From: a virus
DNA: 31,538 bases
Virus record (IMG/VR): IMGVR_UViG_3300028419_000015
Location: 1-31,538 of that record
Reading direction: 5' to 3' (one strand)
The translations under genes and the position numbers were made by a program. The notes below the pieces were generated by a model. The model was not told where the DNA came from, ran no database searches, and saw nothing but the letters and a program-made list of their open reading frames with translations. This document shows, one piece after another, positions 1,305-17,100 of this stretch; positions within the stretch are counted from its first letter, which is position 1; the number at the start of each line of letters is the position of its first letter.

Positions 1305-1323
1305 TCGCTAAAACAAACTAACC

Positions 1324-1365: not shown

Positions 1366-1369
1366 ACCT

Positions 1370-1759
1370 ATGGACAACCAATCTACAGAAGAGCCCGACA
1401 ACTTCGCAGCTGCTATTGAAGCAGAACTAGCCCGCGCCAAAGCGGAAGTGCTACAACTCGAAGCACAACAAATGCAGATCAAAGCTGATAAGGCTGTCGC
1501 CGAAGCCGAGGCCCTGACCGAAGGAGGCGAAGAAGCCCCTGAAGAAGCCCCTGAAGAAGCCCCTGAAGAAGCCCCTGAAGCAGAGATGGCTGAAGAAGCC
1601 CCTGCCGATCCTGAGATGGTGGAGGAAATGTCCGAAGAAATGACCGAGGAGGAGCCCGAGGGTGAACCCGAAGAGGAAGACGCCGACTTCGCATCTGCGG
1701 TTGAGCAAGCCTTGACTGAAGACGACGAAGAAGACGAAGAAAAAGAAGAATACGCCTAA
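1370..1759 (+). CDS. Highly acidic repeat protein next to capsid gene
   Basis: The 129-aa product is extremely rich in Glu, with Asp, Ala and Pro. It has a short helical N-terminal part (about residues 8-50), a Pro-Glu-Glu-Ala repeat block at about residues 54-70, and an almost purely acidic tail. It has no Cys and no hydrophobic core, so it is probably disordered or extended. The start is ATG 1370, directly downstream of the hairpin and with no Shine-Dalgarno sequence; the next gene follows after 3 bases. I do not recognise a family. Its position beside the capsid gene suggests a head-associated role such as a scaffold-like or capsid-decorating protein, but that is inference from location and charge only. 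Confidence 0.75.
   Translation: MDNQSTEEPDNFAAAIEAELARAKAEVLQLEAQQMQIKADKAVAEAEALTEGGEEAPEEAPEEAPEEAPEAEMAEEAPADPEMVEEMSEEMTEEEPEGEPEEEDADFASAVEQALTEDDEEDEEKEEYA
1529..1576 (+). repeat. Four exact 12-bp tandem repeats
   Basis: GAAGAAGCCCCT is repeated four times without change inside the acidic protein gene, encoding a Glu-Glu-Ala-Pro period. A near copy follows at about 1591-1602. The DNA identity points to slippage expansion, and copy number may vary between relatives. Confidence 0.9.
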
Positions 1760-1762
1760 GCC

Positions 1763-2095
1763 ATGCCCGCCCCAGAGATTGAGATCAAGAGAGGTTCTAC
1801 ATTTTCTCAGACTTGTCTCTGTGTTGATGAGGTGGATAACCCTATTGATCTTTCTTCATGGTCGTTTGAAAGCGACCTTAAACTTGTTTCAAGTAACGAG
1901 AAACTTGTTACGTTCAGTATCGACGACACAGCAGCAGCGGTCGGACAAATCCGCGTGTCTGCACCCCCAGCCGATACTTTAAATTTACCCCCACAGATGT
2001 CGATGGTATTCGACATCAAGTTCACCGACCCAAGTGGTGACATTCATTATTCAGAGAACATTGTCCTGACAACATCTAAGCACATCACCCACTAG
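1763..2095 (+). CDS. Small beta-rich virion protein
   Basis: The 110-aa protein has the pattern 'IEIKRGSTF ... PIDLSSWSFESDLK ... GQIRVSAPP ... FDIKFTDPSGDIHYSENI'. This alternation of an N-terminal RGxTF-like start, a 'P-x-DLS' strand and a late 'DI.F.d..G' strand is common in small immunoglobulin-like beta-sandwich proteins of phage tails and baseplates (BppU N-terminal-like). I assign it by pattern only. It lies 3 bases after the acidic gene and one base before the fibre gene, so it is co-transcribed and probably part of the virion, perhaps a fibre-attachment or head-tail piece. It has no signal peptide or TM segment. Confidence 0.72.
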   Translation: MPAPEIEIKRGSTFSQTCLCVDEVDNPIDLSSWSFESDLKLVSSNEKLVTFSIDDTAAAVGQIRVSAPPADTLNLPPQMSMVFDIKFTDPSGDIHYSENIVLTTSKHITH

Positions 2096-2096
2096 T

Positions 2097-5000
2097 ATGG
2101 CCAACCCAATTAAAGTTATCAAGTTAACAGGGGTCTCAGGCTCCTTAGAAGGAAAAGCAGATGTTGTTCACACACATGTCTTAGCTGATATTACTGATGC
2201 AGGCACAGCAGCTGCCTCCGCCTCAGCCGACTTTGCGACCGCATCCCAAGGAACACTCGCTAGCAACTCCATCCAAGCTGGGACCTTGTCTTCAGTCAAC
2301 TCTCAGATCTCTGATGCTACCCTTATTGATACCACGGATTCCCGCCTTAGTGATGCGAGAACACCAACCACACATAGCCACACACTATCTCAGATTACGG
2401 ATTCTGGGAGTGCCGCTGGTCTTGATGTAGCTACAGTAGGTAATGCCGCAGCTGCCGAAGTTGTTAAAGGCAATGACACTCGTTTATCAGATGACCGTGA
2501 CCCGACGGCACACACCCACACCCTTTCTGACATATCCGACAGCGGCACCGCAGCTGCATCCGATACCACCGACTTTGCTGGCGCAGTCCATGCTCACACC
2601 CTTTCTGACATATCTGACAGCGGCACCGCCGCTGCATCCGATACCACCGACTTTGCTCAAGCAAGCCACACTCACACCCTTTCTGACATATCTGACAGTG
2701 GCACCGCAGCTGCAGCCGACACCACCGATTTTGCTCAAGCAGCCCACACCCACACCCTTGCCAATATTACCGATGGTAATGTCATTGTAAAAACCACGGA
2801 TGCAGATATTAGCGGAGCCTCATTTGTATTAAACGAAGCCACCTTGGTGAGCAACTCACAGACAAAAGTCCCAACACAAGCTAGTGTTAAATCCTATGTC
2901 GATAATGAGATCCTTCTAAGCGCATCAAGTTTCAAAGGAGCTTACAATGCTTCGACTAACACACCTGACTTAACATCACCATCAGCGATCGCAATTTCCG
3001 CAGGAGACACCTATGTCGTCGAGACAGAGGGTAGTTTTTATAGTCAAACATTATTACTTGGGACAACCATAATTGCAGAGGTTGACAGTGCATCCACGGA
3101 AAGTGACTGGACCATAGTCGGGAGTGGGTTAGACGCGGGAACCGTTAAGACAAAATACGAGTCCAATGCAGACACCAACGCCTTCACAGATGCTGAGCAA
3201 ACAAAACTGACAGGCATCGAAACCGCTGCGACAGCTGACCAGACAGGCGCAGAGATCAAAGTGGCTTACGAAGCTGAGGCAGACACCAACGCTTTCACGG
3301 ATGCTGAGCAAACAAAACTGACAGGCATAGAAACCGCTGCGACAGCTGACCAGACAGGAGCAGAGATCAAAGTGGCTTACGAAGCTGAGGCAGATACCAA
3401 CGCTTTCACAGATGCGCTGGCTTCAAAATTGAATGGGTTATCATCAGACCAAGTTTCATACAAAGGAGATTTTGATCCAACTGCATCGGGTGGACTCGGT
3501 TCCCCAAACCTGAATGTAATTACTTCCACTGTAGGTGACATTTACTACGTCACCGCAGCAGGAACATACAACTTCGTAACAGACCCAGACATAACCTTTG
3601 CGGTTGGTGATGTTTTAATAGCTAAATCATCGGGAGTCCTATCCGACTCAGCTGATTGGATAGTCATCACAAGCGACATCACCACCGATGCCTCATGGGC
3701 CACTAAAGGCGACTTAATTGCTGCAACTGGGGCAGGAGCCGCTTCAATACTACCTGCGCCTGTCACCGATGATTTAGTTTTAACGACCGATGCTGCTGAA
3801 GCCACTGGTCTTAAGTGGGCCGCCCCTTCTGGTGGCTTGGTAGACATAGTAGAGGACACGAGCCCCGAATTAGGCGGTAATTTAGATGTGGGAAACTTTG
3901 AAATACGGAAGTCAAACGCACCCTTCTTATCTTTTACTAGTTCAACCTTGGATGAGTTCAGTCTAGATATCCGATCAGGGACCTCATCAGGCTACGGCGC
4001 TCAAAACCCAACGACGATAAGTGTCGTTGATAACACAGGTAGTGGTTTTTATCGAAGTAATTTAAAACTCTCCTCAGCATCGGGAAATTTTGGAGCAGCA
4101 AGCATTGAATTAGATAACTATGTGTTCCAGAGTAATGAGAATCTATCTGGTAAAAGCGGGCAAGTCTTAACATACGATGGATCCGTCATCAAGCTCGCCC
4201 CAGCGGGAGGAGCAGCATCCGACCTTGCGTATGGGGTTGGGTGGAACGGAAACCAAGACGCTGCCACTAAGAATGCGATCTACGATAAGATTGAAACACT
4301 TGGTTGGGATATCACGACTGACACAGCCTTTGATGCTAAGGGTGATCTTATTGTCGGAACGGGTAATAACACAGCTGCCAAATTAACGGCGTTCCCTCAA
4401 GATGGTAAAGTTCTTACAACGGCATCGGGCTACGCAACAGGGCTGGCGTGGCAAGACGCAGCGACTGGTGGCACGACCCAAGGTTCAAGCTCAACTTATG
4501 ATATCTCTGCGGTAGCAAGAAGCTCCACACCTGATGCCCGAGGCAACTATTCGGTAGATCTTCAGATGCAGGGTAACGCTGATGATGTTGCAGCTGGTAC
4601 CCACTCTGCACTTATCGGTGGTAGCTTCAATAGCGCGGCAGGCACTCATGGCTTTATTACTGCTGGAACTGGTAATACTATTCCAGCAAACACATCGCGC
4701 GCATCAATTATTTCATCTACTAATTGTAGTATGGCTAATAGCTATGGCGATAACTCTGTTATCCTAGCACATGGGGGCAATACTCTTGTTACCACAATGT
4801 CCTCTTACAACAGCGCAATTATTGGTGGTCAGGGACACACTCTTGATGGGGGGATGGGTGGTGGAGGATACTGTGCTATTCTTGCAGGCCAGACCAACTC
4901 TGGAAATTATGCAGATAGCTCTATTATACTGGGTGGTAACAATAACAACATCAGTTATGGTTCAAATTGTGTTATCGCTGGAACCCGAGTCAAGGCTACT

Positions 5001-5420
5001 GGTGTGCCACTAGGTAGGTTGGACGGGGTATTTGCCTTCGCCGACACCACCGCCGCTGACTACACCATCACGCAAGAAAAGACAGCCAACTTCCGAGTGG
5101 CTAACGGAATGCACATCTCTGCTCCCTTGTTCATTGATGAGCGAGCCAGTGCATTAGCAGACATAGCAGGTCGCGGCCAAATCTGGGTTAAGACTGCGAC
5201 ACCAAACGAGCTTTGGTTTACTGATGATGCTGGTTCAGATATACCAATTAGTGAGGGTGTGTATACAGTAGCCACCTTACCAACTGGAGTGGCTGGTAGA
5301 AGAGCCTTTGTCACTGACTCAGGTAATACTTTAGCAAGCCACCACGGCCAAGTTGTCACAAACGGTGGAGCCAACTTCGTCCCAGTCTATCATGATGGGT
5401 CAGCGTGGCACGTCGGATAA
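2097..5420 (+). CDS. Large repeat-containing tail fibre
   Basis: The 1107-aa protein is low in Cys and rich in Ala, Thr, Ser, Asp and Gly. In order it has: an N-terminal 'SGSLEGKADVVHTHVLADI' segment of the kind found in many phage fibres; 26-residue repeats at about 139-226; 37-residue repeats at about 354-440; a segment with 'PELGGNLDVGN' (about 590), frequent in fibres; and at about 838-965 a region of repeated small-residue/hydrophobic strands (IIGG-, ILAG-, IILGG-like) resembling the beta-roll head of trimeric YadA-type adhesins. The C-terminal 'GRRAFVTDSG ... VPVYHDGSAWHVG' motif is typical of fibre ends. It is probably a trimeric receptor-binding or fibre-shaft protein. The ATG lies one base after the previous stop, with no Shine-Dalgarno sequence. 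Confidence 0.88.
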   Translation: MANPIKVIKLTGVSGSLEGKADVVHTHVLADITDAGTAAASASADFATASQGTLASNSIQAGTLSSVNSQISDATLIDTTDSRLSDARTPTTHSHTLSQITDSGSAAGLDVATVGNAAAAEVVKGNDTRLSDDRDPTAHTHTLSDISDSGTAAASDTTDFAGAVHAHTLSDISDSGTAAASDTTDFAQASHTHTLSDISDSGTAAAADTTDFAQAAHTHTLANITDGNVIVKTTDADISGASFVLNEATLVSNSQTKVPTQASVKSYVDNEILLSASSFKGAYNASTNTPDLTSPSAIAISAGDTYVVETEGSFYSQTLLLGTTIIAEVDSASTESDWTIVGSGLDAGTVKTKYESNADTNAFTDAEQTKLTGIETAATADQTGAEIKVAYEAEADTNAFTDAEQTKLTGIETAATADQTGAEIKVAYEAEADTNAFTDALASKLNGLSSDQVSYKGDFDPTASGGLGSPNLNVITSTVGDIYYVTAAGTYNFVTDPDITFAVGDVLIAKSSGVLSDSADWIVITSDITTDASWATKGDLIAATGAGAASILPAPVTDDLVLTTDAAEATGLKWAAPSGGLVDIVEDTSPELGGNLDVGNFEIRKSNAPFLSFTSSTLDEFSLDIRSGTSSGYGAQNPTTISVVDNTGSGFYRSNLKLSSASGNFGAASIELDNYVFQSNENLSGKSGQVLTYDGSVIKLAPAGGAASDLAYGVGWNGNQDAATKNAIYDKIETLGWDITTDTAFDAKGDLIVGTGNNTAAKLTAFPQDGKVLTTASGYATGLAWQDAATGGTTQGSSSTYDISAVARSSTPDARGNYSVDLQMQGNADDVAAGTHSALIGGSFNSAAGTHGFITAGTGNTIPANTSRASIISSTNCSMANSYGDNSVILAHGGNTLVTTMSSYNSAIIGGQGHTLDGGMGGGGYCAILAGQTNSGNYADSSIILGGNNNNISYGSNCVIAGTRVKATGVPLGRLDGVFAFADTTAADYTITQEKTANFRVANGMHISAPLFIDERASALADIAGRGQIWVKTATPNELWFTDDAGSDIPISEGVYTVATLPTGVAGRRAFVTDSGNTLASHHGQVVTNGGANFVPVYHDGSAWHVG
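2511..2774 (+). repeat. 78-bp tandem repeats in fibre gene
   Basis: There are three units of 26 codons, at 2511, 2589 and 2667, plus a partial fourth from 2745. Each begins H(T/A)HTLSDISDSGTAAA and has strong DNA identity. They lie fully in frame, so this is a protein-level repeat and not a CRISPR array. Confidence 0.9.
3156..3420 (+). repeat. 111-bp tandem repeats in fibre gene
   Basis: There are two nearly identical 37-codon units (3156-3266, 3267-3377) and a partial third (from 3378). Each carries 'ADTNAFTDAEQTKLTGIE', a motif common in phage fibre shafts. The very few base differences suggest recent duplication. Confidence 0.9.
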
Positions 5421-5456: not shown

Positions 5457-5470
5457 AAACCCATACAATT

Positions 5471-6904
5471 ATGCCAGACGATGTCACAGTATCACAAGAT
5501 GTAGACACTTTCTTAAAGAGTGCCACAAAAGCGGTTGCACGCACGAACCTCGGGTTAGGAACAGCCGCACAGTCTGCTGTGGGGGACTTCGCCACGTCCA
5601 CACAAGGGGATTTAGCTGATACACTCAGCACCACTAAGCAGGACATTTTAACGGAAGGTGCCTTCGTAGATGGTGATAAGACTAAGCTTGATGGGATCAC
5701 TGGAACTAATACAGGAGATCAAGACCTGTCTGGTTTACAGTCTATTTTAACGGAAGGTGCCTTCGTAGATGGTGATAAGACTAAGCTTGATGGGATCACT
5801 GGAACTAATACAGGAGATCAAGACCTGTCTGGTTTACAGTCTATTTTAACGGAAGGTGCCTTCGTAGATGGAGACAAGACTAAGTTGGATGGAATCACGG
5901 GAACAAATACAGGAGATCAAGACCTTTCAGCACTAGCAACAAAAGCTAATGTGTTAGAGTTAGATAATACAGTTTCATTTATTCCTTCAGCAGACTTTCA
6001 TCCAGCAACTAAGAAATATGTAGATGATAACGCTGGGGGCGGTGGCAGCGCAGAGACAGCGGAAACTTCCGTTTATATTGATGCGGGAGCGATGCTAGCC
6101 AAAGACGGAGAGGCAGACGCAAGCACGGGAGCGGATAACGGAACTAATAACTCTGTTGATTGGTATAACGTAGCAACGGGAGAAACTTTATACGCTAAAA
6201 TTGCAATGCCCCCTCAATGGGATAAAGGCGTAATTGATGTGGAACTTTACTGGACAATCACAGGAGGCACAGTCGGAGAGAATGTAAAATGGGAAGTGGC
6301 TGCACAAGCTGGCGGCAATGATGATGCGTGGGATATTGCTTTCCCCGCTCCTACAGCAACGCTAGACGATCCTATTCTTGCAGATGGAGACATACACCAA
6401 ATCACAGCATCATCCATCACAGTGGGCGGTAGTGCCACAGATGGAGACATTCTCCACCTCGAGATTGCAAGGGCAGCAGCGGGAGCAACGGCAGCTTCAC
6501 AAGATGCAAGGTTACTTGGAATCCGCTTGAAATATTCCAATAGCCTTTTGCAGAATTGGTATAGTTGGAAGCTCGGCAATGAAACAGCAGACGCAACTAT
6601 TGGTATTAAAAATACTTGGTATGCCCCTGCAGCTGGAAAGGTCCACGCGGTCGCGGCAGGTGCAGCCAGCGCAACGAGCGGTAGCGCATTAGCTTTAGAT
6701 GTTCACAAGACAGGAGTAACCATTTTCTCAACTGGTATCACTATTGATGATGCACAAACGGATACTTCCAACGCAACCACTCCAGCAGTACTGACAACTG
6801 ATCCGACTACTTTTAATGCTGGAGATAAATTTGAATTTGAAGTAGATACAACTACAGCAGGGGGAGCGGGATTGCATTGCGATTTGCTTATCTCATGGGA
6901 CTAA
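5471..6904 (+). CDS. Tail fibre with triplicated 33-residue shaft repeat
   Basis: The 477-aa protein opens with 'VSQDVDTFLKSATKAVARTNLGLGTAAQSAVGDF', a segment typical of phage fibres that have a 'R-x-NLGLG' step. It then has three 33-residue repeats (about 59-155), a 'PATKKYVDDN' hinge typical of fibre shafts (about 178-187), a Gly-rich linker, and a beta-rich C-terminal half (about 200-477) without recognised catalytic residues. I infer a virion fibre or spike, with the C-terminal part as a possible receptor-binding domain. It follows the larger fibre after a 50-bp gap that may hold a promoter. There is no signal peptide or TM segment. Confidence 0.85.
   Translation: MPDDVTVSQDVDTFLKSATKAVARTNLGLGTAAQSAVGDFATSTQGDLADTLSTTKQDILTEGAFVDGDKTKLDGITGTNTGDQDLSGLQSILTEGAFVDGDKTKLDGITGTNTGDQDLSGLQSILTEGAFVDGDKTKLDGITGTNTGDQDLSALATKANVLELDNTVSFIPSADFHPATKKYVDDNAGGGGSAETAETSVYIDAGAMLAKDGEADASTGADNGTNNSVDWYNVATGETLYAKIAMPPQWDKGVIDVELYWTITGGTVGENVKWEVAAQAGGNDDAWDIAFPAPTATLDDPILADGDIHQITASSITVGGSATDGDILHLEIARAAAGATAASQDARLLGIRLKYSNSLLQNWYSWKLGNETADATIGIKNTWYAPAAGKVHAVAAGAASATSGSALALDVHKTGVTIFSTGITIDDAQTDTSNATTPAVLTTDPTTFNAGDKFEFEVDTTTAGGAGLHCDLLISWD
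5645..5935 (+). repeat. 99-bp tandem repeat, three copies
   Basis: Units begin at 5645, 5744 and 5843. Units 1 and 2 appear identical over all 99 bases. Unit 3 is the same length class but carries several, mostly silent, changes and diverges at its end. Each encodes ILTEGAFVDGDKTKLDGITG followed by TNTGDQDLS. Confidence 0.93.
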
Positions 6905-6923
6905 AACATAACAGAACATAAAA

Positions 6924-7499
6924 ATGGCTATCACATATCCAATCCAAGAATCAGACAGATTTACTGTCTATGACACGAACACTTCTGCCCCTCTCAAAGA
7001 TGGCAGCGGGAAACCAATGACAGGACTAAAATGGGGATCTAACGATACCTCTCAAATGATTCCTTTTTTGGCTGAAAACATTAAATGGCTTATCGAAGTT
7101 AAAGAAGCAAAGCCAAGTTATGATTCCTCAACTCAGAAAATCAAAAGGCTTCCCGTCAATTATGACGTAGCTAACGAGACTGCAACAATTCAAAGCTTTG
7201 AAGTTGTCGATCTAACACAAGATGAAATTGATGCAAAGATTCCACCACATTTCTTGAGTGATGGAGGCATTAAATACGATGTTGCCACAGATGCACAGAA
7301 CGCATTTACTCGTATGCTTACCTTGGTTGACCAAGCTCAAATGCCAGCAGAGGCAGAGCTTACAGTTAAAGATGTATTAGGCGAAGTTCAAACCCTAACA
7401 GTATCAGCATTTAAGTTAGACATGATTGCCTATGGTCTACATTGCTACGAGCTATTTAATTATGTTCCTCCTGTAGTTGATCCAGACGGCATCATTTAA
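6924..7499 (+). CDS. Possible tail fibre-associated or assembly protein
   Basis: The 191-aa protein sits between fibre genes, 19 bases after the preceding stop. It contains 'NIKWLIEVKEAKPSYDSSTQ' (about 52-71), 'DLTQDEID' (about 96-103), and a helical C-terminal half with 'LGEVQTLTVSAFKLDMIAYG'. This arrangement, a beta-rich front and then a helical part with a step where an amino acid is 'tested' before 'x-T-x-x-x-F-K/x-L', resembles small fibre-assembly or DUF4376-like proteins found beside fibre genes. I assign this only tentatively. Its TAA overlaps the next ATG by one base (TAATG), so translation is probably coupled to the LamG gene. It has no signal peptide. Confidence 0.6.
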   Translation: MAITYPIQESDRFTVYDTNTSAPLKDGSGKPMTGLKWGSNDTSQMIPFLAENIKWLIEVKEAKPSYDSSTQKIKRLPVNYDVANETATIQSFEVVDLTQDEIDAKIPPHFLSDGGIKYDVATDAQNAFTRMLTLVDQAQMPAEAELTVKDVLGEVQTLTVSAFKLDMIAYGLHCYELFNYVPPVVDPDGII

Positions 7500-9562
7500 T
7501 GAATCAAATCAATCCATACAGGCACGGGGGAGAGGCTCTAGCATTTGACGGCTTTGGTAATCGAAGCCGTAGCTTTAATGGTGTTGATGATTATATTTCT
7601 ATCCCAGATATTAATGAAAGCACTACTAATTTGAGTGTCGCTCTTTGGGTAAAAACTACGGATCAAGATTGGGTTACAACTCACCTTGCTCATTGGCGAA
7701 CATTAAGCAATAATAGAGCTTGGTGGATTGGACCTTCAAGAACAGCGGAAACCAATGGCAAAAAGTTGATGGTTTATTTGTCAGGTGATGGCGATGGAGC
7801 AGACCCAGTTAAAAGATATTACGGCACTACTGACGTTTCAGATGGGACATGGCATCATGTAGCGTTTACTTGGGATAACGGAACTCTTAAATTATTTGTT
7901 GATGGTTCAGAGGAAACAACCACTAAGGTTTTTGATCATGCAATGACAACAATTTACAACAGCGATGGGCCTATAACAGTTGGATGCACATGGGTGAATG
8001 ATGCACCTGCAAATTTGGGAAGTGGCGGTAAAGCAGATGTTAGAATCTACAACTCCACATTAACCGCTACTGATATATCAGACATCTACAACGGCACAAA
8101 CATCACAACTAATCTCGTAGGTCACTGGCTAACAGATGCAGACAACTTGCTAGACAACGCTGGTTCTAACAACGGCACTAACTACGGGTCAAAGTATTCT
8201 TATGATAACCCATCACCGCCTGTAGAGTTTGGCAGCGCAAGCCGTGACTTTAACGGGACAAGTGATTATATTTCAATCCCAGATATTAATGAAAGCACTA
8301 CTAATTTGAGTGCCGCTCTTTGGGTAAAGACAACGCAATCTGGCGCAGACAAACTATTTTTTAGTCATTGGGATGTTGGTGGCGCTACTAGGGCATGGAC
8401 AATGACAAATGGTGCAAATGGTCAATTTAGAGTTGCGATTGCAGCAACGGGTGATTCTGCCACTAGAAAAATTTACTACACAAATGGTTTATATATTAAT
8501 GATGGTTCTTGGCATCATGTGGCATTTACATTTTCAAATAACAACCTAAAACTTTTTGTTAATGGTGTTGAAGATGCTAACATCGTCAAGCAAGAAGACT
8601 CTACAGTAAATTCTATTTTTAATAGTTCTGCTAATTTATCTATTGGTGGCGCACTCAATAGTGGAAACTTGATATATCCATCAGCTTGCAAATTATCAGA
8701 TTGCAGAATCTATGACACTGACCTAACAGCTTCCCAAGTATCCGACCTATACGCTGGCACGGATGTTCGAACTAACCTAGTAGGACATTGGCTAACAGAT
8801 AACGATGACGTAGAAGACAAAGCTGGGACAAATGACGGCACTAACTTTGGCTCTACTTACTCATACGATAATCCTCCTATGGATCTAGTTCCATCTAGGC
8901 AAGCTTCACGAGATTTTAGTGGTGTAAGTCAGCACGTTGAAATGAGTGATGTTGTAAGCATAGGAACGGGCAGCTTGAGTTGGTCTTGCTGGCTTAACGC
9001 AGACAGCATAGTAAATACCAGAGGAATCGTTAGAATGGGGCGAGCCTCCTCAAGTGGAAATGCTCGTTACGATGGGTTACAAATATTGCTCGTTAATTCA
9101 AAAATCAGTGGATACTTAATTGACTATAACAATTCTGGAAACGTCTTTGCGATACAAAGTTCAAGCAATGTAGTTGTAGGAAAATGGCATCACGCAGTAG
9201 TATCTCTTGACGCAAACGCTAAGACATTAGAACTTTTTGCGGATGGAGTAAGTGAGGGTAGCGTATCACTTTCAAGCATACACCCGTGGGATATAACAGC
9301 ACAAGATCCTCCGAGCATAGGAGCAAGAGAGATTGCAGACGGAAATTTTACGGCTGATGAATTTAATGGAAGAATAGCTGATGTTAGATTATATGATTCT
9401 GCTTTAACATTAACAGAAGTGCTAGATATCTACAACGGCACAACAGATAGAACCAACCTTATTGGTCAGTGGCTAACAAACAGCGATGACGTTCTAGACC
9501 ATGCGGGAACTAATGACGGCACAAACAATGGTTCTACTTACTCAACAGATAGCCCTTCTTAA
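7499..9562 (+). CDS. Three-domain LamG-type fibre or adhesin
   Basis: The 687-aa protein consists of a short N-terminal segment (to about residue 20) and three concanavalin/LamG-like beta-sandwich domains at about 22-205, 247-430 and 472-665. Each domain begins with 'RxFxGxxxYI/V', has a middle 'G(T/S/K)WHHxVxxxD' strand, and ends with 'DxRxYxxxLTxxxxxDxYxGT..xTNLxGxWLT'. LamG folds usually bind glycans, so binding of host surface sugars is a reasonable inference. The N-terminal 'AFDGFGNRSRSFNGVDDYI' is shared with the next gene, which marks the two as paralogues. The region looks more AT-rich than neighbouring genes. Its start overlaps the previous stop. Confidence 0.85.
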   Translation: MNQINPYRHGGEALAFDGFGNRSRSFNGVDDYISIPDINESTTNLSVALWVKTTDQDWVTTHLAHWRTLSNNRAWWIGPSRTAETNGKKLMVYLSGDGDGADPVKRYYGTTDVSDGTWHHVAFTWDNGTLKLFVDGSEETTTKVFDHAMTTIYNSDGPITVGCTWVNDAPANLGSGGKADVRIYNSTLTATDISDIYNGTNITTNLVGHWLTDADNLLDNAGSNNGTNYGSKYSYDNPSPPVEFGSASRDFNGTSDYISIPDINESTTNLSAALWVKTTQSGADKLFFSHWDVGGATRAWTMTNGANGQFRVAIAATGDSATRKIYYTNGLYINDGSWHHVAFTFSNNNLKLFVNGVEDANIVKQEDSTVNSIFNSSANLSIGGALNSGNLIYPSACKLSDCRIYDTDLTASQVSDLYAGTDVRTNLVGHWLTDNDDVEDKAGTNDGTNFGSTYSYDNPPMDLVPSRQASRDFSGVSQHVEMSDVVSIGTGSLSWSCWLNADSIVNTRGIVRMGRASSSGNARYDGLQILLVNSKISGYLIDYNNSGNVFAIQSSSNVVVGKWHHAVVSLDANAKTLELFADGVSEGSVSLSSIHPWDITAQDPPSIGAREIADGNFTADEFNGRIADVRLYDSALTLTEVLDIYNGTTDRTNLIGQWLTNSDDVLDHAGTNDGTNNGSTYSTDSPS
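7589..8334 (+). repeat. Intragenic LamG domain duplication
   Basis: Bases 7589-7659 and 8264-8334 match over 71 bases with four differences. The offset is 675 bp (225 codons), so this is an in-frame domain duplication within one gene. DNA identity well above the protein similarity elsewhere in the domains points to recent duplication or gene conversion. Confidence 0.88.
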
Positions 9563-9567
9563 AAATA

Positions 9568-11772
9568 ATGAGTTCATATTTATCACATAGACGAAAAGGA
9601 TTCCAAGGCGGTGTTACTGCATTTGATGGCTTTGGTAATAAAAGTCGTAGCTTTAATGGTGTTGATGATTATATTGATTTAAATTCTACCAACCCCTTCA
9701 ATGGAAAAAATCAACTTACATTTTCGGCATGGATTAAGATGGATGTTGTTGATTTTGGGTTTGTAGCTGGTTCGCTCGCAAGCAATAGCGTATCAAGATT
9801 TAGAGTTATGATACGTGACACTGGTCTCATTCATGTTATATGGGGCGATGGTTCAAGTTTTTTAGTTTCTACTCAAGACGGGGCTGCCTTGCAAGACGGA
9901 GAGTGGGCGCATATAGCTGTAACCTTCAATAATTCTGGCAACATGACTCGTTATTTCAACGGAATACAGACAGGCACAATAGACGATTTATCTAGTTACG
10001 GGTCTCTATCAGTTACTGAAGATATGTTTATAGGCGCAAGGAACAGGGGGACAACAGCAACAGACATATATTTTAATGGAAACATCGCAGACGTAAGAAT
10101 ATATGATACAGAGTTTTCTGCGTCAGACATCTCCGACCTATACAACGGAACAAACGTAACCACAAACCTAGTAGGTCACTGGATCAAGGATACAGATGAC
10201 GTTTTAGATCATTCTGTTAATTCTAACAATGGTGAAAACTTCGGCAGTATTTTCTCACCCGATAACCCATCCCCAGCCATAGAGTTTGGGAGGGCTTCAC
10301 GTTTATTTGATGGTGTTGATGATCGAGTCAAACTTGGCGATTCGCTTGATTCTGTATTCGCTGGCACAGGCGCAGAGTTCACCATCAGTGCTTGGATCAA
10401 AGTTGATTTTAATAATTCACAAGCACACGGAATAATAACAAAAGATAACTATACAGGCTCATTAAGGCAGTTTAATTTCCAAGTTCTTTCGAGTGGTATT
10501 ATACGTGTTGTTGTAACTAATACGTCTGGAAGTATACAGCGTAGATTTGATTCTGTCGTTGGTCATATACAAGATGATGTTTGGTGTCATGTAGCATTTA
10601 CATACGATCAAACACAAGCTGATAATGATAAAGTTGTTGTTTATTATAATGGTTCTATTGTATCTACTAACATAACAAATAACAATGGCTCAAATGTAGT
10701 AATAGATGATACCTCAGCAGATCTTATTATTGGAGCGTTTCACAACAGTGTAAATGATCCTTTTTATTTTAATGGTAACATCGCAGATTGTCGCATTTTT
10801 GACTCAACATTAACATCCACAGACATCGCCAGCTTATACAACGGCACAGATGTTCAAACAAACCTTGTAGGGCATTGGCTAACAGATAACGATGACGTAG
10901 AAGACAAAGCTGGAACTAATGATGGAACTAACTTTGGTTCTACTTACTCGTATGATGCTCCGCTACCAGCTAACAAATTAATAGACACTTACGCTAGTGC
11001 TTGTGGTGCTTACTCACTCAGAGAGCTTACTACTGCTTGGGCTGGTCAACCAGTTGTTGAAGTAAGGAGAACCCTTGATGGAGCATATAGTGATTTTACA
11101 GCATCGGAAATAACCGACGGTACGCTGGCTACTTGGTGTCAAGGTACATCAGCTTTTGTTCGTACTTGGTATGATCAAAGCGGTAATGGTATAGATGTAA
11201 CACAAACCACGGAAGCCAGCCAACCAAGAATTGCTACCAATGGTGTTGTTGAATCAGAGAACGGCAAGCCAGCAATAAATTTTGATACAACTGCGGCAGG
11301 ATTTAGTAACGCTGGAAACTTTGATTATGAAGGTGGTGTTTCTTGGTATGCAGTCACACACACGACAGTCAATACTAGCCAAGATCGTGTTTGGTGTGAT
11401 GATATAATTGGTCAGCAAGGGTTTGTGATTTTCTATACAGATGGATCATATTATTTAAATGATGGTGCAGGGTATGAAACGTTCAATACTACAGGAGAAA
11501 CCACAAATCAGCAGTTAAGGTCATTTAACTTTGATGAGTCTCAAGGTTCATATAATTATGGTTTTAATGGATCATCTACAAGCGGTTCATTCGGAACATG
11601 GGCAGGTAGTATTGAAACTAGCGGTACTTCTAACATAGGTGTAGGTCAAGCAGGAAATGGAGGGCATAGTTACCAAGGCAAAATGCAAGAATTGATTATT
11701 TACCCTAACGATCAGCTACATAACAAAGAAAACATTGAGCGCAATATTAACGAGTTTTACAGTATTTACTAA
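9568..11772 (+). CDS. LamG fibre with arabinofuranosidase B-like C-terminal domain
   Basis: The 734-aa protein has two LamG-like domains (about 25-210 and 250-435) followed by a different C-terminal domain (about 470-734). That domain contains 'GAYSLRELTTAWAGQPVVEV', 'FVRTWYDQSGNG' and 'ASQPRIATNG'. These match the pattern of the alpha-L-arabinofuranosidase B catalytic/concanavalin fold, which recurs in phage fibre proteins. Whether it cleaves or only binds sugar cannot be seen. The N terminus is paralogous to the upstream gene, and a 41-base block (10873-10913) is identical to 8786-8826 there. It starts 5 bases after the upstream stop and ends the fibre region; a promoter follows. It is probably a receptor-binding or surface-glycan protein. 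Confidence 0.85.
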   Translation: MSSYLSHRRKGFQGGVTAFDGFGNKSRSFNGVDDYIDLNSTNPFNGKNQLTFSAWIKMDVVDFGFVAGSLASNSVSRFRVMIRDTGLIHVIWGDGSSFLVSTQDGAALQDGEWAHIAVTFNNSGNMTRYFNGIQTGTIDDLSSYGSLSVTEDMFIGARNRGTTATDIYFNGNIADVRIYDTEFSASDISDLYNGTNVTTNLVGHWIKDTDDVLDHSVNSNNGENFGSIFSPDNPSPAIEFGRASRLFDGVDDRVKLGDSLDSVFAGTGAEFTISAWIKVDFNNSQAHGIITKDNYTGSLRQFNFQVLSSGIIRVVVTNTSGSIQRRFDSVVGHIQDDVWCHVAFTYDQTQADNDKVVVYYNGSIVSTNITNNNGSNVVIDDTSADLIIGAFHNSVNDPFYFNGNIADCRIFDSTLTSTDIASLYNGTDVQTNLVGHWLTDNDDVEDKAGTNDGTNFGSTYSYDAPLPANKLIDTYASACGAYSLRELTTAWAGQPVVEVRRTLDGAYSDFTASEITDGTLATWCQGTSAFVRTWYDQSGNGIDVTQTTEASQPRIATNGVVESENGKPAINFDTTAAGFSNAGNFDYEGGVSWYAVTHTTVNTSQDRVWCDDIIGQQGFVIFYTDGSYYLNDGAGYETFNTTGETTNQQLRSFNFDESQGSYNYGFNGSSTSGSFGTWAGSIETSGTSNIGVGQAGNGGHSYQGKMQELIIYPNDQLHNKENIERNINEFYSIY

Positions 11773-11798
11773 GACTCAACATATTCCGCACTATAAAC

Positions 11799-11826
11799 TT
11801 GAACCCCTGACCCTGTAGCCTAAAAT
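11799..11826 (+). promoter_or_regulatory. Sigma70-like promoter, probably leaderless transcript
   Basis: The -35 TTGAAC (11799-11804), 16-bp spacing and -10 TAAAAT (11821-11826) are close to consensus. Only 7 bases separate the -10 from the ATG at 11834, so the transcript should start at or next to the start codon. It would drive the sulfotransferase and lysis genes. Confidence 0.65.
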
Positions 11827-11833
11827 ATGGGCC

Positions 11834-12640
11834 ATGGAGAAAGAGATACATTTTGTCTGCGGCCTACCAAGGAGCGGCTCGACCCTGCTCTGCAACCTTC
11901 TAGCACAGCACCCCGACGTCCACACTACCCCCACCAGCGCGTGCCATGAGTCTTTGTTCGTGTTACGAAATAACTGGAACCAGTGGCTGGAGCACAAAGC
12001 CTCTAAGGATTTAGCGGATGACAAGAACTTGCAGCGTGTGATGCACGCCATGATCCATGCTTACCATGATACTGATAAGCCCGTGGTTATAGATAAAGGC
12101 CGTGGCTGGACTAGTTTGCTCGAGATGGCAGAGTTTGCATTAGGTAGAAAAGCTAAGGTTTTAGTTCCAGTCCGCAACATTAGCCAGATTGTTTCCAGTA
12201 TGGAGAAGCTGCACCGTAAAGCAGCACACAAGAAACAGGATAGTGGTGACTATTTTGCGGCACAAACTGTAGATGGGAGGGCTAATCAAGTCCTAGCCAA
12301 AGACGGCGTGCTTGGTTTAGCTTACAACCGCCTTAAAGATGCGGCTCAGCGCGGACTCGCTGATCGATTATTGCTGGTCGAGTTTGATGCACTTACCTCT
12401 AAGCCTACCGAAACCATGGCAGAAGTATGGGATTTCCTCGGGATGGAGGCACCAGAACACAACTTCAACAACGTAGAGCAGACCACAACGGAGGACGACA
12501 GCGTCCACGGTCTTGACTTGCACACAATCCGACCTATAATAGAACCTGTCCCAGACGACAGCGAAGAAGTTCTAGGCACCACCTTGTGTAAGACATTAGA
12601 AGGAGCTGAATTTTGGAGACCTGCTTCACCCCCAGCCTGA
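11834..12640 (+). CDS. Sulfotransferase (PAPS-dependent family)
   Basis: The 268-aa protein has the 5'-phosphosulfate-binding loop GLPRSGSTLL (10-19) and a 3'-phosphate-binding segment VPVRNISQIVSS (111-122) with the expected Arg114 and Ser122 eight residues apart. A 'VVIDKGRGW' strand (84-92) also fits the fold. The family transfers sulfate from PAPS to hydroxyl or amino groups of sugars, lipids or proteins. Sulfotransferase genes are known in several aquatic phages, with largely unknown substrates. It lacks a signal peptide, so it would act in the cytoplasm, perhaps on host glycans or a virion component. It is the first gene after the candidate promoter; the next gene starts 2 bases after its stop, making it the head of the lysis operon. 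Confidence 0.88.
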   Translation: MEKEIHFVCGLPRSGSTLLCNLLAQHPDVHTTPTSACHESLFVLRNNWNQWLEHKASKDLADDKNLQRVMHAMIHAYHDTDKPVVIDKGRGWTSLLEMAEFALGRKAKVLVPVRNISQIVSSMEKLHRKAAHKKQDSGDYFAAQTVDGRANQVLAKDGVLGLAYNRLKDAAQRGLADRLLLVEFDALTSKPTETMAEVWDFLGMEAPEHNFNNVEQTTTEDDSVHGLDLHTIRPIIEPVPDDSEEVLGTTLCKTLEGAEFWRPASPPA

Positions 12641-12642
12641 AC

Positions 12643-13059
12643 ATGACACCCCCAAATCCAGACCTGCACACATACTATGACGGCGAACTAGGAGAGCGAG
12701 TGTTCTATTCTTGTGAGCCTATTGCTTACGACAGTGGACAAGAGCCTTTAATTGTAGTCCCACCCAAATTTATTAGCAATGGTCTGTCAATCCCACGTGC
12801 TGCACAACCCTTAATCAATACCCCAAAGGCCCCAGAGTGGGTGGGTGCAGGTATTTTACATGATTGGCTTTATTCCAAAGTGGAACGACATGAAAACATA
12901 TCCCGTAGAAAATGCGACCGCATCTTCTTGCTGTTCATGAAACTGTATGGCGTAGGGATCATTAAGCGTAGAATCATTTACTGGGCAGTCAGAGCAGCTG
13001 GCCGCCTTGCATTCCGAAAGAAAACCCCAAAATTCGCAACCCATAACCACCATGATTAA
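12643..13059 (+). CDS. DUF1353-like phage protein
   Basis: I chose ATG 12643 (138 aa), 2 bases after the sulfotransferase stop; a TTG at 12613 would overlap that gene. The motifs match the DUF1353 pattern of tailed phages: 'VVPPKFISNGLSIPR' (38-52), 'ILHDWLYSK' (71-79), then 'ISRRKCDRIF' (86-95) and a helical C terminus 'GVGIIKRRIIYWAVRAAGR'. The function of the family is not established. Members often lie close to lysis or tail genes. The conserved His73-Asp74, Ser87-Arg88 and Asp92 suggest a metal or catalytic site, but this is inference. The C terminus is basic and could lie on a membrane. It overlaps the following lipoprotein gene by 8 bases. Confidence 0.78.
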   Translation: MTPPNPDLHTYYDGELGERVFYSCEPIAYDSGQEPLIVVPPKFISNGLSIPRAAQPLINTPKAPEWVGAGILHDWLYSKVERHENISRRKCDRIFLLFMKLYGVGIIKRRIIYWAVRAAGRLAFRKKTPKFATHNHHD

Positions 13060-13213
13060 ATACATATTAGTAGCATTAGCAACCCTAGCACTCGCAGCAT
13101 GTGAGGGCCTTAGCGTCAACCTTGACAACGACAAGTTCAAAGGCTCTTATTCCGCCAAAGGTGGGTTAGTTATTTCACCTCAAGCAATTCGTATTATCGA
13201 GCCAGCTAAATGA
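13052..13213 (+). CDS. Small lipoprotein in lysis cassette
   Basis: ATG 13052 gives 53 aa. The upstream in-frame start at 13007 would add a polar extension that spoils the signal peptide, so I rejected it. The N terminus is a classic lipoprotein signal: Lys3, a hydrophobic stretch, then the lipobox LALAAC with Cys17, followed by Glu. The mature part is about 37 aa (SVNLDNDKFKGSYSAKGGLVI). Its location between the DUF1353 gene and the endolysin, with overlaps on both sides (the stop overlaps the amidase start as ATGA), suggests a lysis role such as an outer-membrane spanin-like partner. However, it lacks the Pro-rich body of typical Rz1, and no inner-membrane spanin is evident. A lipoprotein for superinfection exclusion is another option. 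Confidence 0.72.
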   Translation: MIKYILVALATLALAACEGLSVNLDNDKFKGSYSAKGGLVISPQAIRIIEPAK

Positions 13214-13842
13214 AGCGCATCTGCCTCGACGCAGGTCACGGCGGAAATGACGTAGGTGCCCTAGGGCCATCGGGTTTGGAAGAATCCGAGATGGCCCTCG
13301 ACGTGTGTGAACGCGCTAAGTTCATTCTATCTCCTTACGTAGAGGTAGTGATGACTCGCAGCAATGACACCTCCGTCAGCCTCACTGAGAGAGCTGATAT
13401 CTGTAATGCTGCGGATTGTGATATCTTTATCTCATATCATTTTAATGCAGCTACCAGCATGGTCGCAAACGGTTGGGAGATCTTTACTACTAAGAAAGAC
13501 AACAACTCAGATAAGCTGGCGACCTGCATCGGAGAGGCTCACGCTGCCCTGTTCCCGACTCAGAATGCTCGCCAAGACTGGTCAGATGGCGATCTTGACA
13601 AAGAAGCAGATTTTTCTGTGATACGCAGAGCCAACTGCCCCGCCGTGTTGATGGAAGGGGAGTTTATACATACCGCTCTGGGTGAGGCACTTATAAATGA
13701 TCCTAGCAATCGAGAGAAGATGGCGCGGGCTATAGCCGACGGATCATTGAAATACCTTGGTTTGCAGCCCATCACAAGCAAACCCGCATTGACATTAGAG
13801 GAACGGATTGCTAGAATCGAAAAAACCTTAGGGATATCATGA
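13210..13842 (+). CDS. N-acetylmuramoyl-L-alanine amidase endolysin (Amidase_3 type)
   Basis: The 210-aa protein has the zinc-amidase layout: LDAGHGG with His10, a Glu at 24/25, 'MTRSNDTSVSLTERADICN' (48-66), 'DIFISYHFNA' with His77, and 'AVLMEGEFI' with catalytic Glu149. It would cut the bond between N-acetylmuramate and the stem peptide L-Ala. There is no signal peptide or SAR anchor, so release to the cell wall should need a holin, and a candidate is the next gene (ATGA overlap). The C-terminal 'LTLEERIARIEKTLGIS' is a short coiled-coil-like tail, perhaps for oligomerisation or anchoring. The start overlaps the lipoprotein stop. Confidence 0.9.
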   Translation: MKRICLDAGHGGNDVGALGPSGLEESEMALDVCERAKFILSPYVEVVMTRSNDTSVSLTERADICNAADCDIFISYHFNAATSMVANGWEIFTTKKDNNSDKLATCIGEAHAALFPTQNARQDWSDGDLDKEADFSVIRRANCPAVLMEGEFIHTALGEALINDPSNREKMARAIADGSLKYLGLQPITSKPALTLEERIARIEKTLGIS

Positions 13843-14075
13843 GCGTGGAAGACAAACTCGAATCAATAATGTCGGAGCTACGCTCCATAAGAAAGACCAC
13901 GGAGAAGCTAGAAGAGCGGATCAATGGTAATGGGAGGGCTGGAGTATTCGAGCGCATAGTGTCCGTTGAGACTAGGATCAGTGAGGCAGAGAAGAACAAA
14001 TCAGCTTCGGTCGCACTGGGAACAGCAATCATGTCAGCCCTTGGTGTGATTGCCTCGTTGTTTTTTGGTAAATGA
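13839..14075 (+). CDS. Coiled-coil plus C-terminal TM protein, candidate holin (XhlA-like layout)
   Basis: The 78-aa protein has a heptad-like N-terminal region (about 3-53, 'LESIMSELRSIRKTTEKLEE') and a single C-terminal membrane segment (about 55-76, 'ASVALGTAIMSALGVIASLF') ending in GK. This is the layout of XhlA/hemolysin-type phage proteins, which accompany amidases and holins. Its start overlaps the amidase stop (ATGA). An AGGG lies 6 bases before its ATG, one of the few Shine-Dalgarno-like matches in the window. It is the last gene of the sulfotransferase/lysis operon. I infer a holin or a holin-partner role; no other membrane protein in the window competes for that role. Confidence 0.72.
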   Translation: MSVEDKLESIMSELRSIRKTTEKLEERINGNGRAGVFERIVSVETRISEAEKNKSASVALGTAIMSALGVIASLFFGK

Positions 14076-14099
14076 TCCCTCGTGTGCTGTGTTTTGAAG

Positions 14100-14128
14100 T
14101 TGGCTTTTTGCCGTGAGTGATGTAAACT
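14100..14128 (+). promoter_or_regulatory. Sigma70-like promoter before the 1308-aa gene
   Basis: The elements are TTGGCT (14100-14105), a 17-bp spacer and TAAACT (14123-14128). The -10 ends 6 bases before the ATG at 14135, again implying a leaderless mRNA. It would drive the genes from 14135 to 19586. Confidence 0.5.
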
Positions 14129-14134
14129 GCGCGT

Positions 14135-17100
14135 ATGCCTCTGAGTAGCCAACGTCAGCGTTTCTCTATATTTGTCAGTCCACGGAACGAGGACTTTTTA
14201 TTCTACGAAAAAGTAGACAAGCAGCGTGTACAGGAGTCTATCCCAGAATATGGCGACCCTCACCCTGATTTTAGGAAATACCCTAATCATTTCTTTACTC
14301 AAGCTGTTCAGGCCGACGAAGAGGGGCAGGTTTATTTTTATTACTATGCCGCAAAGCGCGATCACCAAGATGATTACAACTTTGAGCACTCCACTGTCAA
14401 TCATAAGTCTGGCACATATGATCAAGTAATAAGGACCTACATCACTCTACGGTCAGAATACGACGAGGATGCCCCAGCACTGGGATCCCCGATGCCTATT
14501 GTAGATGCTGACCCCTTTGATGCATCTGATAAGTATACCCTAATTTCTAGGGAGCAATCTCGTGTCGGTGAAACAGTAGGTATCTCATCGAAGAGAAACC
14601 CAGACGAGATGGACTCCATGTTTGTGCTGGAGAAATGTGTGTATCTCAAGAGGGCACCCATTACCACGACCTCATATGACAAAAACACAGGGGCTCATGT
14701 CTTTACTACGACAAACCTAGTTCACCGAGATGAGATAATATCGACCAAAGGCGCAGACGCACAAGAACTTTTTTACCTTCGTCCCGACAACGTCTCACAG
14801 TATTATCAGCCTGACGGTGTATCCCGATACGCCGTCTATGGCGCGACCTCAGGGGTTACAGGGTTTACTGTTGTCGAGCTATTAGACGATAGTGACAACC
14901 CTTTCTGGGAGGTAGACGAGGAGACAGGAGCGCACCAAACGGTTGAACAGGTTTCCGAAGAGTGGTTCTATGTGTCAGCTATCCAGAATGGCGAGGTCAA
15001 TGAGCGCCGCGTGTTCGTATACCTGACTCCAGACCAGAATGATTTTGTGTTCTATGAGCTGGTTGACCGTAAAAATGAGAAGCTAGAACCAGCCCCACTA
15101 CCAGAATTTGGGGAAGCACACTCCGAGTTTACAGACCACAAGTTCGTGGCCGCTGTCCCCAATGACAATATTGGAGACTTCTACAAGTTTTACTACGCTC
15201 GTGATCGGTTCAACGAAGACCAGTATAATTTCTCTGAGTCCTTCGTAGACATTGGCGGAGTCCGCGTATCCTTAGTCCGTCGCAGCTACGTCGTGCTCCG
15301 TGACTCCTATGACCCTGATGCACCTGTCGTTGGTGCGCCAATGTCACCTGAACCAAACAACAAGTTTACAGGCAACTACCTGCTCGTGGATCGTGTTCAA
15401 CGACCCATCGAAGATGAGACCTTGTCCTCGCTGTATGTATCGGAAGAGCGTATTTATGCTAAGACTCCAGACGTAGGGAATCAGGAAGGAAACTTCACGC
15501 TTCAGGAAGGAGGGTTGACGGTCACGCGCACATGGATCGTGCCAAGGGATCAGGTTGGAGCATTCCCTAGACCAGCAGTCGGAGCATCAGACTCTAAGTA
15601 TGGACAATATGAATACGCTACACGACGTATATCTCAGGAGACACCACCTGAGATAGACAGCTATTTCAGTGTAGTCTTGGACATTTATGCCAAGAAAGGT
15701 TGGGCCTTTCAAGAAGACCACCAGTATAACATCGGGTATAAGATTATCGAAACCTCCACCCTAGAGGATGAAAAGTACGGAGAGGGTAATTACACAGTAT
15801 CATTTGATGAGCGTGGGTGGCAGAGGAAGCAGCGTAGTGCCGAGCTCACTGGATTTGAATACGAATCACAAGTCGAGACCAGACCATATGGTAAGATAAC
15901 GACCAACACATCCGCGGGAACCGAGCCCATTGTAGGGCAGAACAACACCCGTAGTCGTATTGTGTTTGATGATGGCACCTTACAAATTTATCAACGCGAC
16001 GAAGACACCTTCACCATTAAAGAAGGCTCCGCAGGTCAGGAGAAGAATGAGCAGATCTACGCATCAATAACCACCAATAAGTTTTACAGATCAACGGGGG
16101 ATGTGCTGACTGACACGGGGTCTAGTCGGGTTATCTATGATGACGGGACTACACAAGTGTATGAAGTTAGCGAGGAGTCTGTAGTAGCCAAAGAAGGTGA
16201 CGCAGGTCAAACTATACAGAAGACCGCGTCGGCAATTATCACCACTAGCAGTATTTTCTCCCAGAATGGTGATGTCACAGGGGACACTGGTAGCTCTCGG
16301 GTCGTTTACCGCGGCGGCGGAGTAACTATTTATCAAATAGATAACGAGGTCGCTGAGTTACCTGCCGACACAGACGCTGGTGAGACCAAACAGCAGACTG
16401 TCTTCGCCGATATATCTACTGCAAGTGAGTTCAGACTTTCTCCTACGATCAACACAGACACTGGTAGCTCACGTGTAGCTTACCGCGGTGGTGGTGTTGT
16501 GATCTACCAAGTAGATGAAGAGACGACAACGATCACTACTAATACTGACGCTGGTGAGACAATACAAAAAACAGCTGCTGCCAAGATCACCACAACTAGC
16601 ACATATGCCCAGTCTGGTGATGTCACTGGTGACACGGGTAGCTCTCGAGTAGTTTACCGAGGTGGTGGTGTTATCCTTTACCAGATTGATAATGAGGTCG
16701 CTCAGTTACCCACTAACACAGACGCTGGACAGACTAAACAGCAGACTATATTCGCCGACATCACTACAACAAGCACATATGCAACCTCTGGCAATATCTC
16801 ATCCGCTACAGGAAGTTCACGTGTGGCTTACCGCGGAGGTGGGATTGTTATCTACCAAGTTGACAATGAGACTACAACAGTAGCCTCTAATAAAGATGCT
16901 GGTCAGACTAAAGAAGCCCGTTTATATGGCACGCTGACGACAACTAGTACATATAGCCAGAGCTCTAGCGTCACTGGAAACATTGGTAGATCAAGGGTAG
17001 TGTATCGGGGTGGTGGGACAATCATTTACCAAGTCGATGTAGAAGATCTTGTATTCAAAGCAGCGGAGAATGGGGAGACCAAAGAGTCTACTATATATGC

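What the first reader, a model, noticed from the sequence alone, without database searches (positions are those of the whole stretch)
7589..10913. Sequence exchange within and between the two LamG genes
A 71-base block with four differences repeats inside the first gene (offset 675), and a 41-base block (8786-8826) is identical to 10873-10913 in the second gene, while flanking sequence is much more diverged. This mosaic identity suggests gene conversion or recombination that reshuffles glycan-binding domains, a possible phage counterpart of receptor-domain swapping.
Basis: partly seen in the sequence, partly recalled or inferred. Interest (0 to 1): 0.55.

Follow-up and report, generated by a model that had tools for sequence, protein, structure and literature searches.

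The report
Swappable lectin cassettes in phage adhesins
Two neighbouring genes of an uncultured phage encode a row of five lectin-like domains; the conserved linkers keep their places while the domain cores are swapped between positions, genes and otherwise unrelated phages, probably changing which cells the phage can bind.

Summary
In detail: 7589-7659 repeats at 8264-8334 with 4 differences, and 8786-8826 equals 10873-10913, inside units only 55-58% identical. The 41-base block is not the exchanged domain. It lies in a linker found at 95-98% in three other phages at gene 1 slot b and in one at gene 2 slot b. The 71-base block does look like a chimera between slots a and b of gene 1.

The larger finding: each unit is a conserved, slot-specific linker plus a lectin core that behaves as a cassette. 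Over six phages, linkers are more alike in the same slot (0.79 versus 0.62; 0 of 5000 shuffles) while cores show no slot memory (0.327 versus 0.324; 1991 of 5000). Some cores changed slot or gene: E1b to F1c (94%), A1b to B2b (88%). The window's first core is shared with phage A at 88%. The whole module (about 5.6-11.8 kb) recurs in three otherwise unrelated phage backbones and replaces other genes in close relatives of this phage. Ligand binding was not tested. Phage adhesin shuffling is known; the slotted array is a new variant.

The parts
7499..9562 (+). LamG gene 1: three-slot lectin array (slots 1a, 1b, 1c)
   Evidence: ORF; Pfam Laminin_G_3 E 1.1e-63, 3 stretches
9568..11772 (+). LamG gene 2: two-slot lectin array (2a, 2b) plus C-terminal virion-protein-like domain
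   Evidence: ORF; Laminin_G_3 E 2.5e-40, 2 stretches; phrog_10356 over residues 477-733
7571..8032 (+). core cassette 1a
   Evidence: 88% aa to A1a; four-fold sites same 53/62 against 49/123 in flanking genes, p=1.3e-9
8246..8695 (+). core cassette 1b, chimeric: its start (about 24 codons) is 1a-like
   Evidence: 71-base block, 4 differences; segment profile
8912..9376 (+). core cassette 1c
   Evidence: Boundaries by conserved SR.F.G and AD.R.Y motifs; at most 34% aa identity to any other core
9649..10086 (+). core cassette 2a
10303..10782 (+). core cassette 2b
8033..8245 (+). slot-specific linker (right framework) 1a
   Evidence: 90% aa to A1a, 80% to E1a, 86% to F1a
8696..8911 (+). slot-specific linker 1b; holds the finding's 41-base block 8786-8826
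   Evidence: 90% aa to E1b and F1b; 41-base block at 95-98% in A1b, E1b, F1b, B2b
9377..9559 (+). slot-specific linker 1c (end of gene 1)
   Evidence: 84-89% aa to A1c, E1c, F1c
10087..10302 (+). slot-specific linker 2a
   Evidence: 83-86% aa to B2a and C2a
10783..10960 (+). slot-specific linker 2b; holds the second copy of the 41-base block 10873-10913
   Evidence: 84-87% aa to A2b and B2b
7589..7659 (+). 71-base block, copy in core 1a
8264..8334 (+). 71-base block, copy in core 1b
7541..7597 (+). left framework of gene 1, 93% to 9619-9675 of gene 2; phage C has a gene 1 leader joined to a gene 2 body across this block
9619..9675 (+). left framework of gene 2
5645..11772 (+). horizontally shared adhesin module (stalk protein from its 99-base repeats, 191-aa protein, two LamG genes); GC3 0.28-0.36 per gene against 0.41-0.56 elsewhere
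   Evidence: blastn W 5645-7597 to phage E 85.3%, per-gene GC3; other backbone genes unmatched; replaced in close relatives
6924..7499 (+). 191-aa protein travelling with the module (no family match)
   Evidence: 51-86% aa identity in five other module phages

Best explanation
The two genes encode a five-slot array of LamG-fold lectins that is probably part of the virion's host-recognition apparatus. Each slot has a fixed, slot-specific linker and a replaceable lectin core. Cores are exchanged as cassettes between slots, between the two genes and between co-infecting phages. In the best-resolved case the crossovers fall in the short conserved motifs at the first strand (SR.F.GV.D) and last strand (AD.R.Y) of the jelly roll. 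The whole module also moves between unrelated phages by replacement of the adhesin locus. SHOWN: slot-bound linkers, cores without slot memory, cross-slot and cross-gene cassettes, precise junctions in one pair, and module sharing across unrelated backbones. INFERRED: glycan or receptor binding, host-range consequence, and recombination in co-infected cells at 14-23 base identities by general phage or host recombination (no dedicated recombinase found).
For: Six phages, 23 units (J and the E-type gene 2 left out): same-slot against other-slot identity is 0.791 against 0.616 for linkers (0/5000 shuffles) and 0.327 against 0.324 for cores (1991/5000). On trees of 24 rows each, slot changes are 6 for linkers (shuffled mean 15.0, 0/1000) and 14 for cores (shuffled mean 15.0, 306/1000). 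Cassettes: E1b-F1c 94% aa with 63/63 four-fold sites, while F is 96.8% identical to E over the adjoining 2.8 kb; A1b-B2b 88% across genes, 49/58 against 113/179 in flanks, p=0.0014; W1a-A1a 53/62 against 49/123, p=1.3e-9; B1b-J1b 21/22 against 65/139, p=6.4e-6. F1c junctions. Module: of 24 window ORFs of at least 150 aa only 5 match A, B or E, all at 5459-11769 (one of them antisense); B and E share 22-23 ORFs with each other and C and J share 14, giving three backbones. L154 is 93.8% identical to W 1-5234, then carries different genes until W 11795. The predicted unit (pLDDT 77) is a jelly roll whose first and last strands match the cassette edges; structural neighbours are lectin-fold proteins.
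Against: No binding, virion location or host is shown. Linkers are not always better conserved at silent sites than flanking genes (W-E 57/88 against 145/216; W-B 70/129 against 54/123, p=0.064; A-B 61/124 against 113/179; E-B 27/73 against 58/124), so linkers as homologous crossover handles are not proven. The B1b-E1c pair (77% aa) shows no silent-site excess (15/44 against 58/124) and may be an old exchange. Only four core pairs at or above 60% support movement in the six-phage set, plus one cut pair (B1b-J1b). In the window, four of five cores have no close relative found. All sequences are metagenome contigs.
Confidence: 0.8

Rival explanations
1. Local gene conversion between the two neighbouring genes homogenises parts of the domains within one genome.
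For: Exact 41-base block. 71-base block with W1a-W1b 4, W1a-A1a 5 and W1b-A1a 9 differences. Short blocks exceed shuffles. The gene 1 and gene 2 starts share 57 bases at 93%.
Against: The 41-base block is 95-98% identical in three other phages at slot 1b and in one at 2b. Window linkers agree at only 12/23 four-fold sites with each other, against 22/33 and 24/33 with other phages. The clearest swaps are between phages.
Confidence: 0.2
2. Old duplication followed by very fast, positively selected divergence of the cores, with linkers under constraint; no exchange.
For: Linkers are conserved and cores diverged in most comparisons.
Against: Cores in different slots or genes that are 88-94% identical, with all 63 four-fold sites identical in one pair, cannot arise by divergence. 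Cores show no slot memory.
Confidence: 0.03
3. Metagenome mis-assembly at repeated linkers makes false chimeras.
For: All phages here are metagenome contigs, and several contigs end inside the array: C, 3300025809, 3300025654 and F, J, and the copy of W in 3300024320.
Against: A1b-B2b and W1a-A1a are 88% aa identical, so they diverged after the move. Exact identity at the E1b/E1c junctions is only 14 and 23 bases, and F1c has private differences there. Four other E-type contigs are 99.8% identical to E.
Confidence: 0.05
4. A dedicated diversifier (diversity-generating retroelement or site-specific invertase/shufflon) makes the variation.
For: These are known generators of phage adhesin variation (recalled; PMC10743442 and PMC6199706 seen as search listing and start of abstract only).
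Against: RVT_1, resolvase, tyrosine integrase and RecT each match 0 of 7 contigs. No inverted repeats at four of five boundaries; one imperfect 13-base pair in the other. Variation replaces whole cores and not single bases.
Confidence: 0.04

Closest known systems
Shared host-recognition modules of unrelated Alteromonas phages A5 and V22 (PMC10579305; passages read)
   Same: A homologous adhesin module is carried by otherwise distant, morphologically different phages.
   Different: There the module is a tail fibre plus chaperone; here it is a multi-slot LamG array whose cores also swap between slots and genes.
Recent domain shuffling in phage receptor-binding proteins (PMC10684548; passages read)
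   Same: Recent recombination swaps domains of receptor-binding proteins across taxonomic borders.
   Different: The terms lectin, laminin, concanavalin and tandem gave 0 matches in that main text; slot-specific linkers with position-hopping cores in tandem arrays were not among the passages seen.
Replacement of variable regions among concurrent marine phages (PMC3861242; passages read)
   Same: Near-identical marine phages differ by large replaced segments, some of them host-recognition genes; whether linker regions facilitate such recombination is raised there as an open question.
   Different: No slotted lectin array in the passages seen; here linkers and cassettes are resolved to codons.
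Cyanophage LamG virion structural proteins (PHROG 8510; Synechococcus phage ACG-2014h)
   Same: Same fold family and weak sequence relation (25% identity; PHROG match; fold match).
   Different: No close homology; cassette behaviour not examined there.

Membership tests
LamG / concanavalin A-like lectin domain (Pfam PF13385) | Score above the curated cut-off | tested here: met
   214 and 138 bits against cut-off 27.6, 3 and 2 stretches
LamG / concanavalin A-like lectin domain (Pfam PF13385) | Jelly-roll beta sandwich | tested here: met
   Unit model pLDDT 77, pTM 0.78; LamG and lectin-fold neighbours
Phage host-recognition (adhesin) protein | Binds host surface and sits on the virion | not testable with these tools
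   Only PHROG labels (virion structural, tail) and neighbouring fibre-like genes
Domain-shuffled receptor-binding protein | Near-identical domain in otherwise diverged proteins or contexts | tested here: met
   E1b-F1c 94%, A1b-B2b 88%, W1a-A1a 88%; silent-site excess for A1b-B2b and W1a-A1a
Mobile host-recognition module across unrelated phages | Homology confined to the module, backbones unrelated | tested here: met
Intragenomic gene conversion (41-base block) | Paralogues closer to each other at silent sites than to orthologues | tested here: not met
   12/23 within genome against 22/33 and 24/33 to other phages
Intragenomic exchange (71-base block) | Within-genome copies closest to each other | tested here: met
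   4 differences against 5 and 9; small numbers
Diversity-generating retroelement | Reverse transcriptase gene near the target | tested here: not met
   RVT_1 in 0 of 7 contigs, which may be fragments
Invertase/shufflon system | Site-specific recombinase and inverted repeats at segment ends | tested here: not met
   Resolvase 0 of 7, integrase 0 of 7; no inverted repeats at 4 of 5 boundaries

The most novel reading that the evidence does not exclude
At least three unrelated phage backbones draw on one common pool of lectin cassettes through a standard socket: slot-specific linkers conserved over long divergence accept any core at any of five slots. Binding repertoire would then be rebuilt combinatorially by ordinary recombination, without a dedicated diversifying enzyme.
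Probability: 0.45. Interest if true: 0.78.

Novelty: new variant of a known kind. Interest (0 to 1): 0.64.

Why it matters
Exchange of phage adhesins is well known, but what lets parts fit together after recombination is usually unclear. Here the answer is visible in sequence: fixed linkers, exchangeable cores, crossovers at the fold's edge strands. It gives a natural multi-slot system in which cassette, slot and donor can be read off, across phages that share almost nothing else. It makes testable whether host range in uncultured phages is set by recombining a shared pool of lectins, and whether tandem arrays give multivalent or multi-host binding.

Tried and rejected
Whole-protein structure of gene 1 gave pLDDT 52 and was not used; the single-unit model replaced it. 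Structural matches to clostridial neurotoxin receptor-binding domains reflect the shared lectin fold only; nothing suggests a toxin. A general claim that linkers are homogenised by recombination was dropped: pooled linkers exceed flanks at silent sites in W-A and A-E, not in W-E, W-B, A-B or E-B. Enrichment of contig ends inside the array was noticed but not tested. Host assignment was not reached: no isolate matches the capsid or terminase protein; capsid relatives lie in two metagenome-assembled genomes, with no LamG unit hit in the three loci. A genome scan with the gene 1 alignment found no relative. Rows left out of the counts: J from the six-phage test (slot b cut at the contig end), four near-identical E-type contigs (folded into E), the E/F/G-type gene 2 (different linkers), the ten distant loci (L014-L023), the five distant loci (L046-L050), K (L057), and the loci apart from C and the copy of W.

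Papers: 7 full-text searches showed no paper on slotted LamG arrays in phages in their listings; three papers were read in passages only. This is not proof that none exists.
Full report
WHAT WAS CLAIMED AND WHAT IS THERE. The window is a linear virus record of 31,538 bases. Gene 1 (7499-9562) and gene 2 (9568-11772) carry three and two Laminin_G_3 stretches. Both blocks of the finding are real: 7589-7659 against 8264-8334 with 4 differences, and 8786-8826 identical to 10873-10913. They stand out from units that are 57.7% and 54.9% identical; 0 of 20,000 codon shuffles match either. A third block, 57 bases at 93%, joins the starts of the two genes.

RELATIVES. Scans of viral contigs gave closely related arrays in a handful of phages. 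Here they are called A (L032), B (L039), C (L040), E (L037, with four contigs about 99.8% identical), F (L009, cut in slot a) and J (L055, cut in slot b); W is the window. In W, A and B gene 1 has slots a, b, c and gene 2 has slots a, b; E and F have the same gene 1 and a different gene 2. C has a single gene whose start is gene 1-like and whose linkers and tail are gene 2-like, so a join across the shared start block is likely.

LINKERS STAY, CORES MOVE. I cut each unit at conserved motifs into core and right-hand linker. In six phages and 23 units (42 same-slot and 174 other-slot pairs between phages), linkers average 0.791 identity in the same slot and 0.616 otherwise (0 of 5000 within-phage shuffles reach this). 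Cores average 0.327 and 0.324 (1991 of 5000). On trees of 24 linkers and 24 cores the slot label changes 6 and 14 times; shuffled labels average 15.0 on both, and 0 and 306 of 1000 shuffles do as well. Linkers therefore remember their slot and cores do not.

INDIVIDUAL SWAPS. In the six-phage set four core pairs reach 60%: E1b-F1c 94%, A1b-B2b 88%, W1a-A1a 88%, B1b-E1c 77%; three of the four lie in different slots and one of them crosses genes. B1b-J1b adds 86% over 77 residues. At four-fold sites W1a-A1a agree at 53/62 against 49/123 in flanking genes (p=1.3e-9), B1b-J1b 21/22 against 65/139 (p=6.4e-6) and A1b-B2b 49/58 against 113/179 (p=0.0014). B1b-E1c does not exceed its flanks (15/44 against 58/124). 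E and F show the cleanest case: F is 96.8% identical to E from linker 1c through the end of its contig (2.8 kb). Yet F slot c holds E's slot b core, with E1c-type frame before and after it. The switch lies in SRDFDGVSD on the left and around ADVRYYDT on the right. The exact identity between the two E contexts there is 14 and 23 bases, and F has private differences, which speaks against assembly error.

THE TWO BLOCKS REINTERPRETED. The 41-base block lies in the slot-b linker and is found at 98% in E1b, 95% in A1b, F1b and B2b, 88% in C2b and 85% in A2b. The window's two copies share 12/23 four-fold sites over the whole linker, no more than with other phages. It marks frame, not an exchanged domain. 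The 71-base block is different: it covers the start of cores 1a and 1b, the rest of these cores is diverged, and W1a-W1b is the closest pair (4 differences against 5 and 9). Core 1b is best read as a chimera whose start came from a 1a-type core within this lineage. These counts are small.

THE MODULE MOVES TOO. Of 24 window ORFs used as queries, only those of this locus, plus the small 1763-2092 gene (C, J) and parts of 2097-5417 (B, J), match the contigs of A, B, C, E and J. An all-against-all run with ORFs of at least 150 aa gives 5 of 24 window ORFs matching A, B or E (all inside 5459-11769, one antisense), 22-23 shared between B and E, and 14 shared between C and J. B and E have siphovirus-like head and tail families such as portal and tape measure; C has a PHROG 405 DNA polymerase and ribonucleotide reductase. 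There are thus at least three backbones. W 5645-7597 is 85.3% identical to E. GC3 of the window genes from 5471 to 11769 is 0.28-0.36 and 0.41-0.56 elsewhere. Conversely, close relatives of the window's backbone lack the array. Among 71 capsid relatives, L154 is 93.8% identical to W 1-5234, then carries other genes, and resumes at W 11795 with the sulfotransferase; L151 and L152 have repeat-rich proteins there. None of L151-L154 has a LamG-unit hit, though L153 ends before the LamG position.

STRUCTURE AND FUNCTION. A model of one unit (24 aligned units, pLDDT 77, pTM 0.78) is a beta-sandwich; residues 10-43, in the linker, are low in confidence. Core edges in that numbering are about 47 and 196, beside the first strand (55-57) and inside the last (194-202). 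Viral neighbours are LamG and concanavalin-like proteins. Binding of surface glycans is inferred from fold, PHROG labels (virion structural, tail) and position among fibre-like genes; it is not shown.

MECHANISM. Reverse transcriptase, resolvase, integrase and RecT each match 0 of 7 contigs, and inverted repeats are absent at four of five boundaries. The window encodes an exonuclease of PHROG 69. The simplest reading is ordinary recombination between co-infecting phages at short conserved motifs, with selection for intact folds; this step is inferred. Whether linkers guide crossovers or merely survive selection is open: linker silent sites exceed flanks in W-A and A-E but not in W-E, W-B, A-B or E-B.

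KNOWN OR NEW. [quoted passage not shown] replacement of large segments among marine phages too (PMC3861242, passages). The slotted array with position-hopping cores in at least three backbones was not found in seven literature searches. I rate it a new variant of a known kind.

Noticed in passing
L027 (contig 3300024320_000555, 20,326 bases): Its first 6.6 kb match window 11213-17769 at 99.97%, and its length equals that of window 11213-31538, so it appears to be the same phage from another dataset whose assembly stops inside LamG gene 2.
   Followed up: partly
window 14135-18061: 1308-aa protein with internal repeats at about 348-base offset (16198-16683 against 16546-17031, 70%).
   Followed up: no
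window 5645-5925: 99-base tandem repeat (2.8 copies, 96%) in the stalk-like protein; it is also where homology to phage E begins.
   Followed up: partly
window 11834-12640: Sulfotransferase-like gene directly after the adhesin locus, 83% conserved in backbone relatives L151, L152 and L154; role in a phage unknown.
   Followed up: no
L151 16117-17748, L152 9003-10748: Backbone relatives carry proteins rich in TASG..S.V.GG repeats (trimeric-adhesin-like, recalled) where the window has the LamG module; L154 has two short proteins there that look LamG-like by eye.
   Followed up: partly
L136, L137, L138: Capsid relatives of the window phage in metagenome bins named Blastopirellula and Opitutae, possible host leads.
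   Followed up: partly
L008 1677-3743: One E-type contig has gene 1 broken by a frame change in slot a; sequencing error or real is unknown.
   Followed up: no
window 10960-11769: The C-terminal domain of gene 2 belongs to a widespread family: 76 loci in viral contigs.
   Followed up: no
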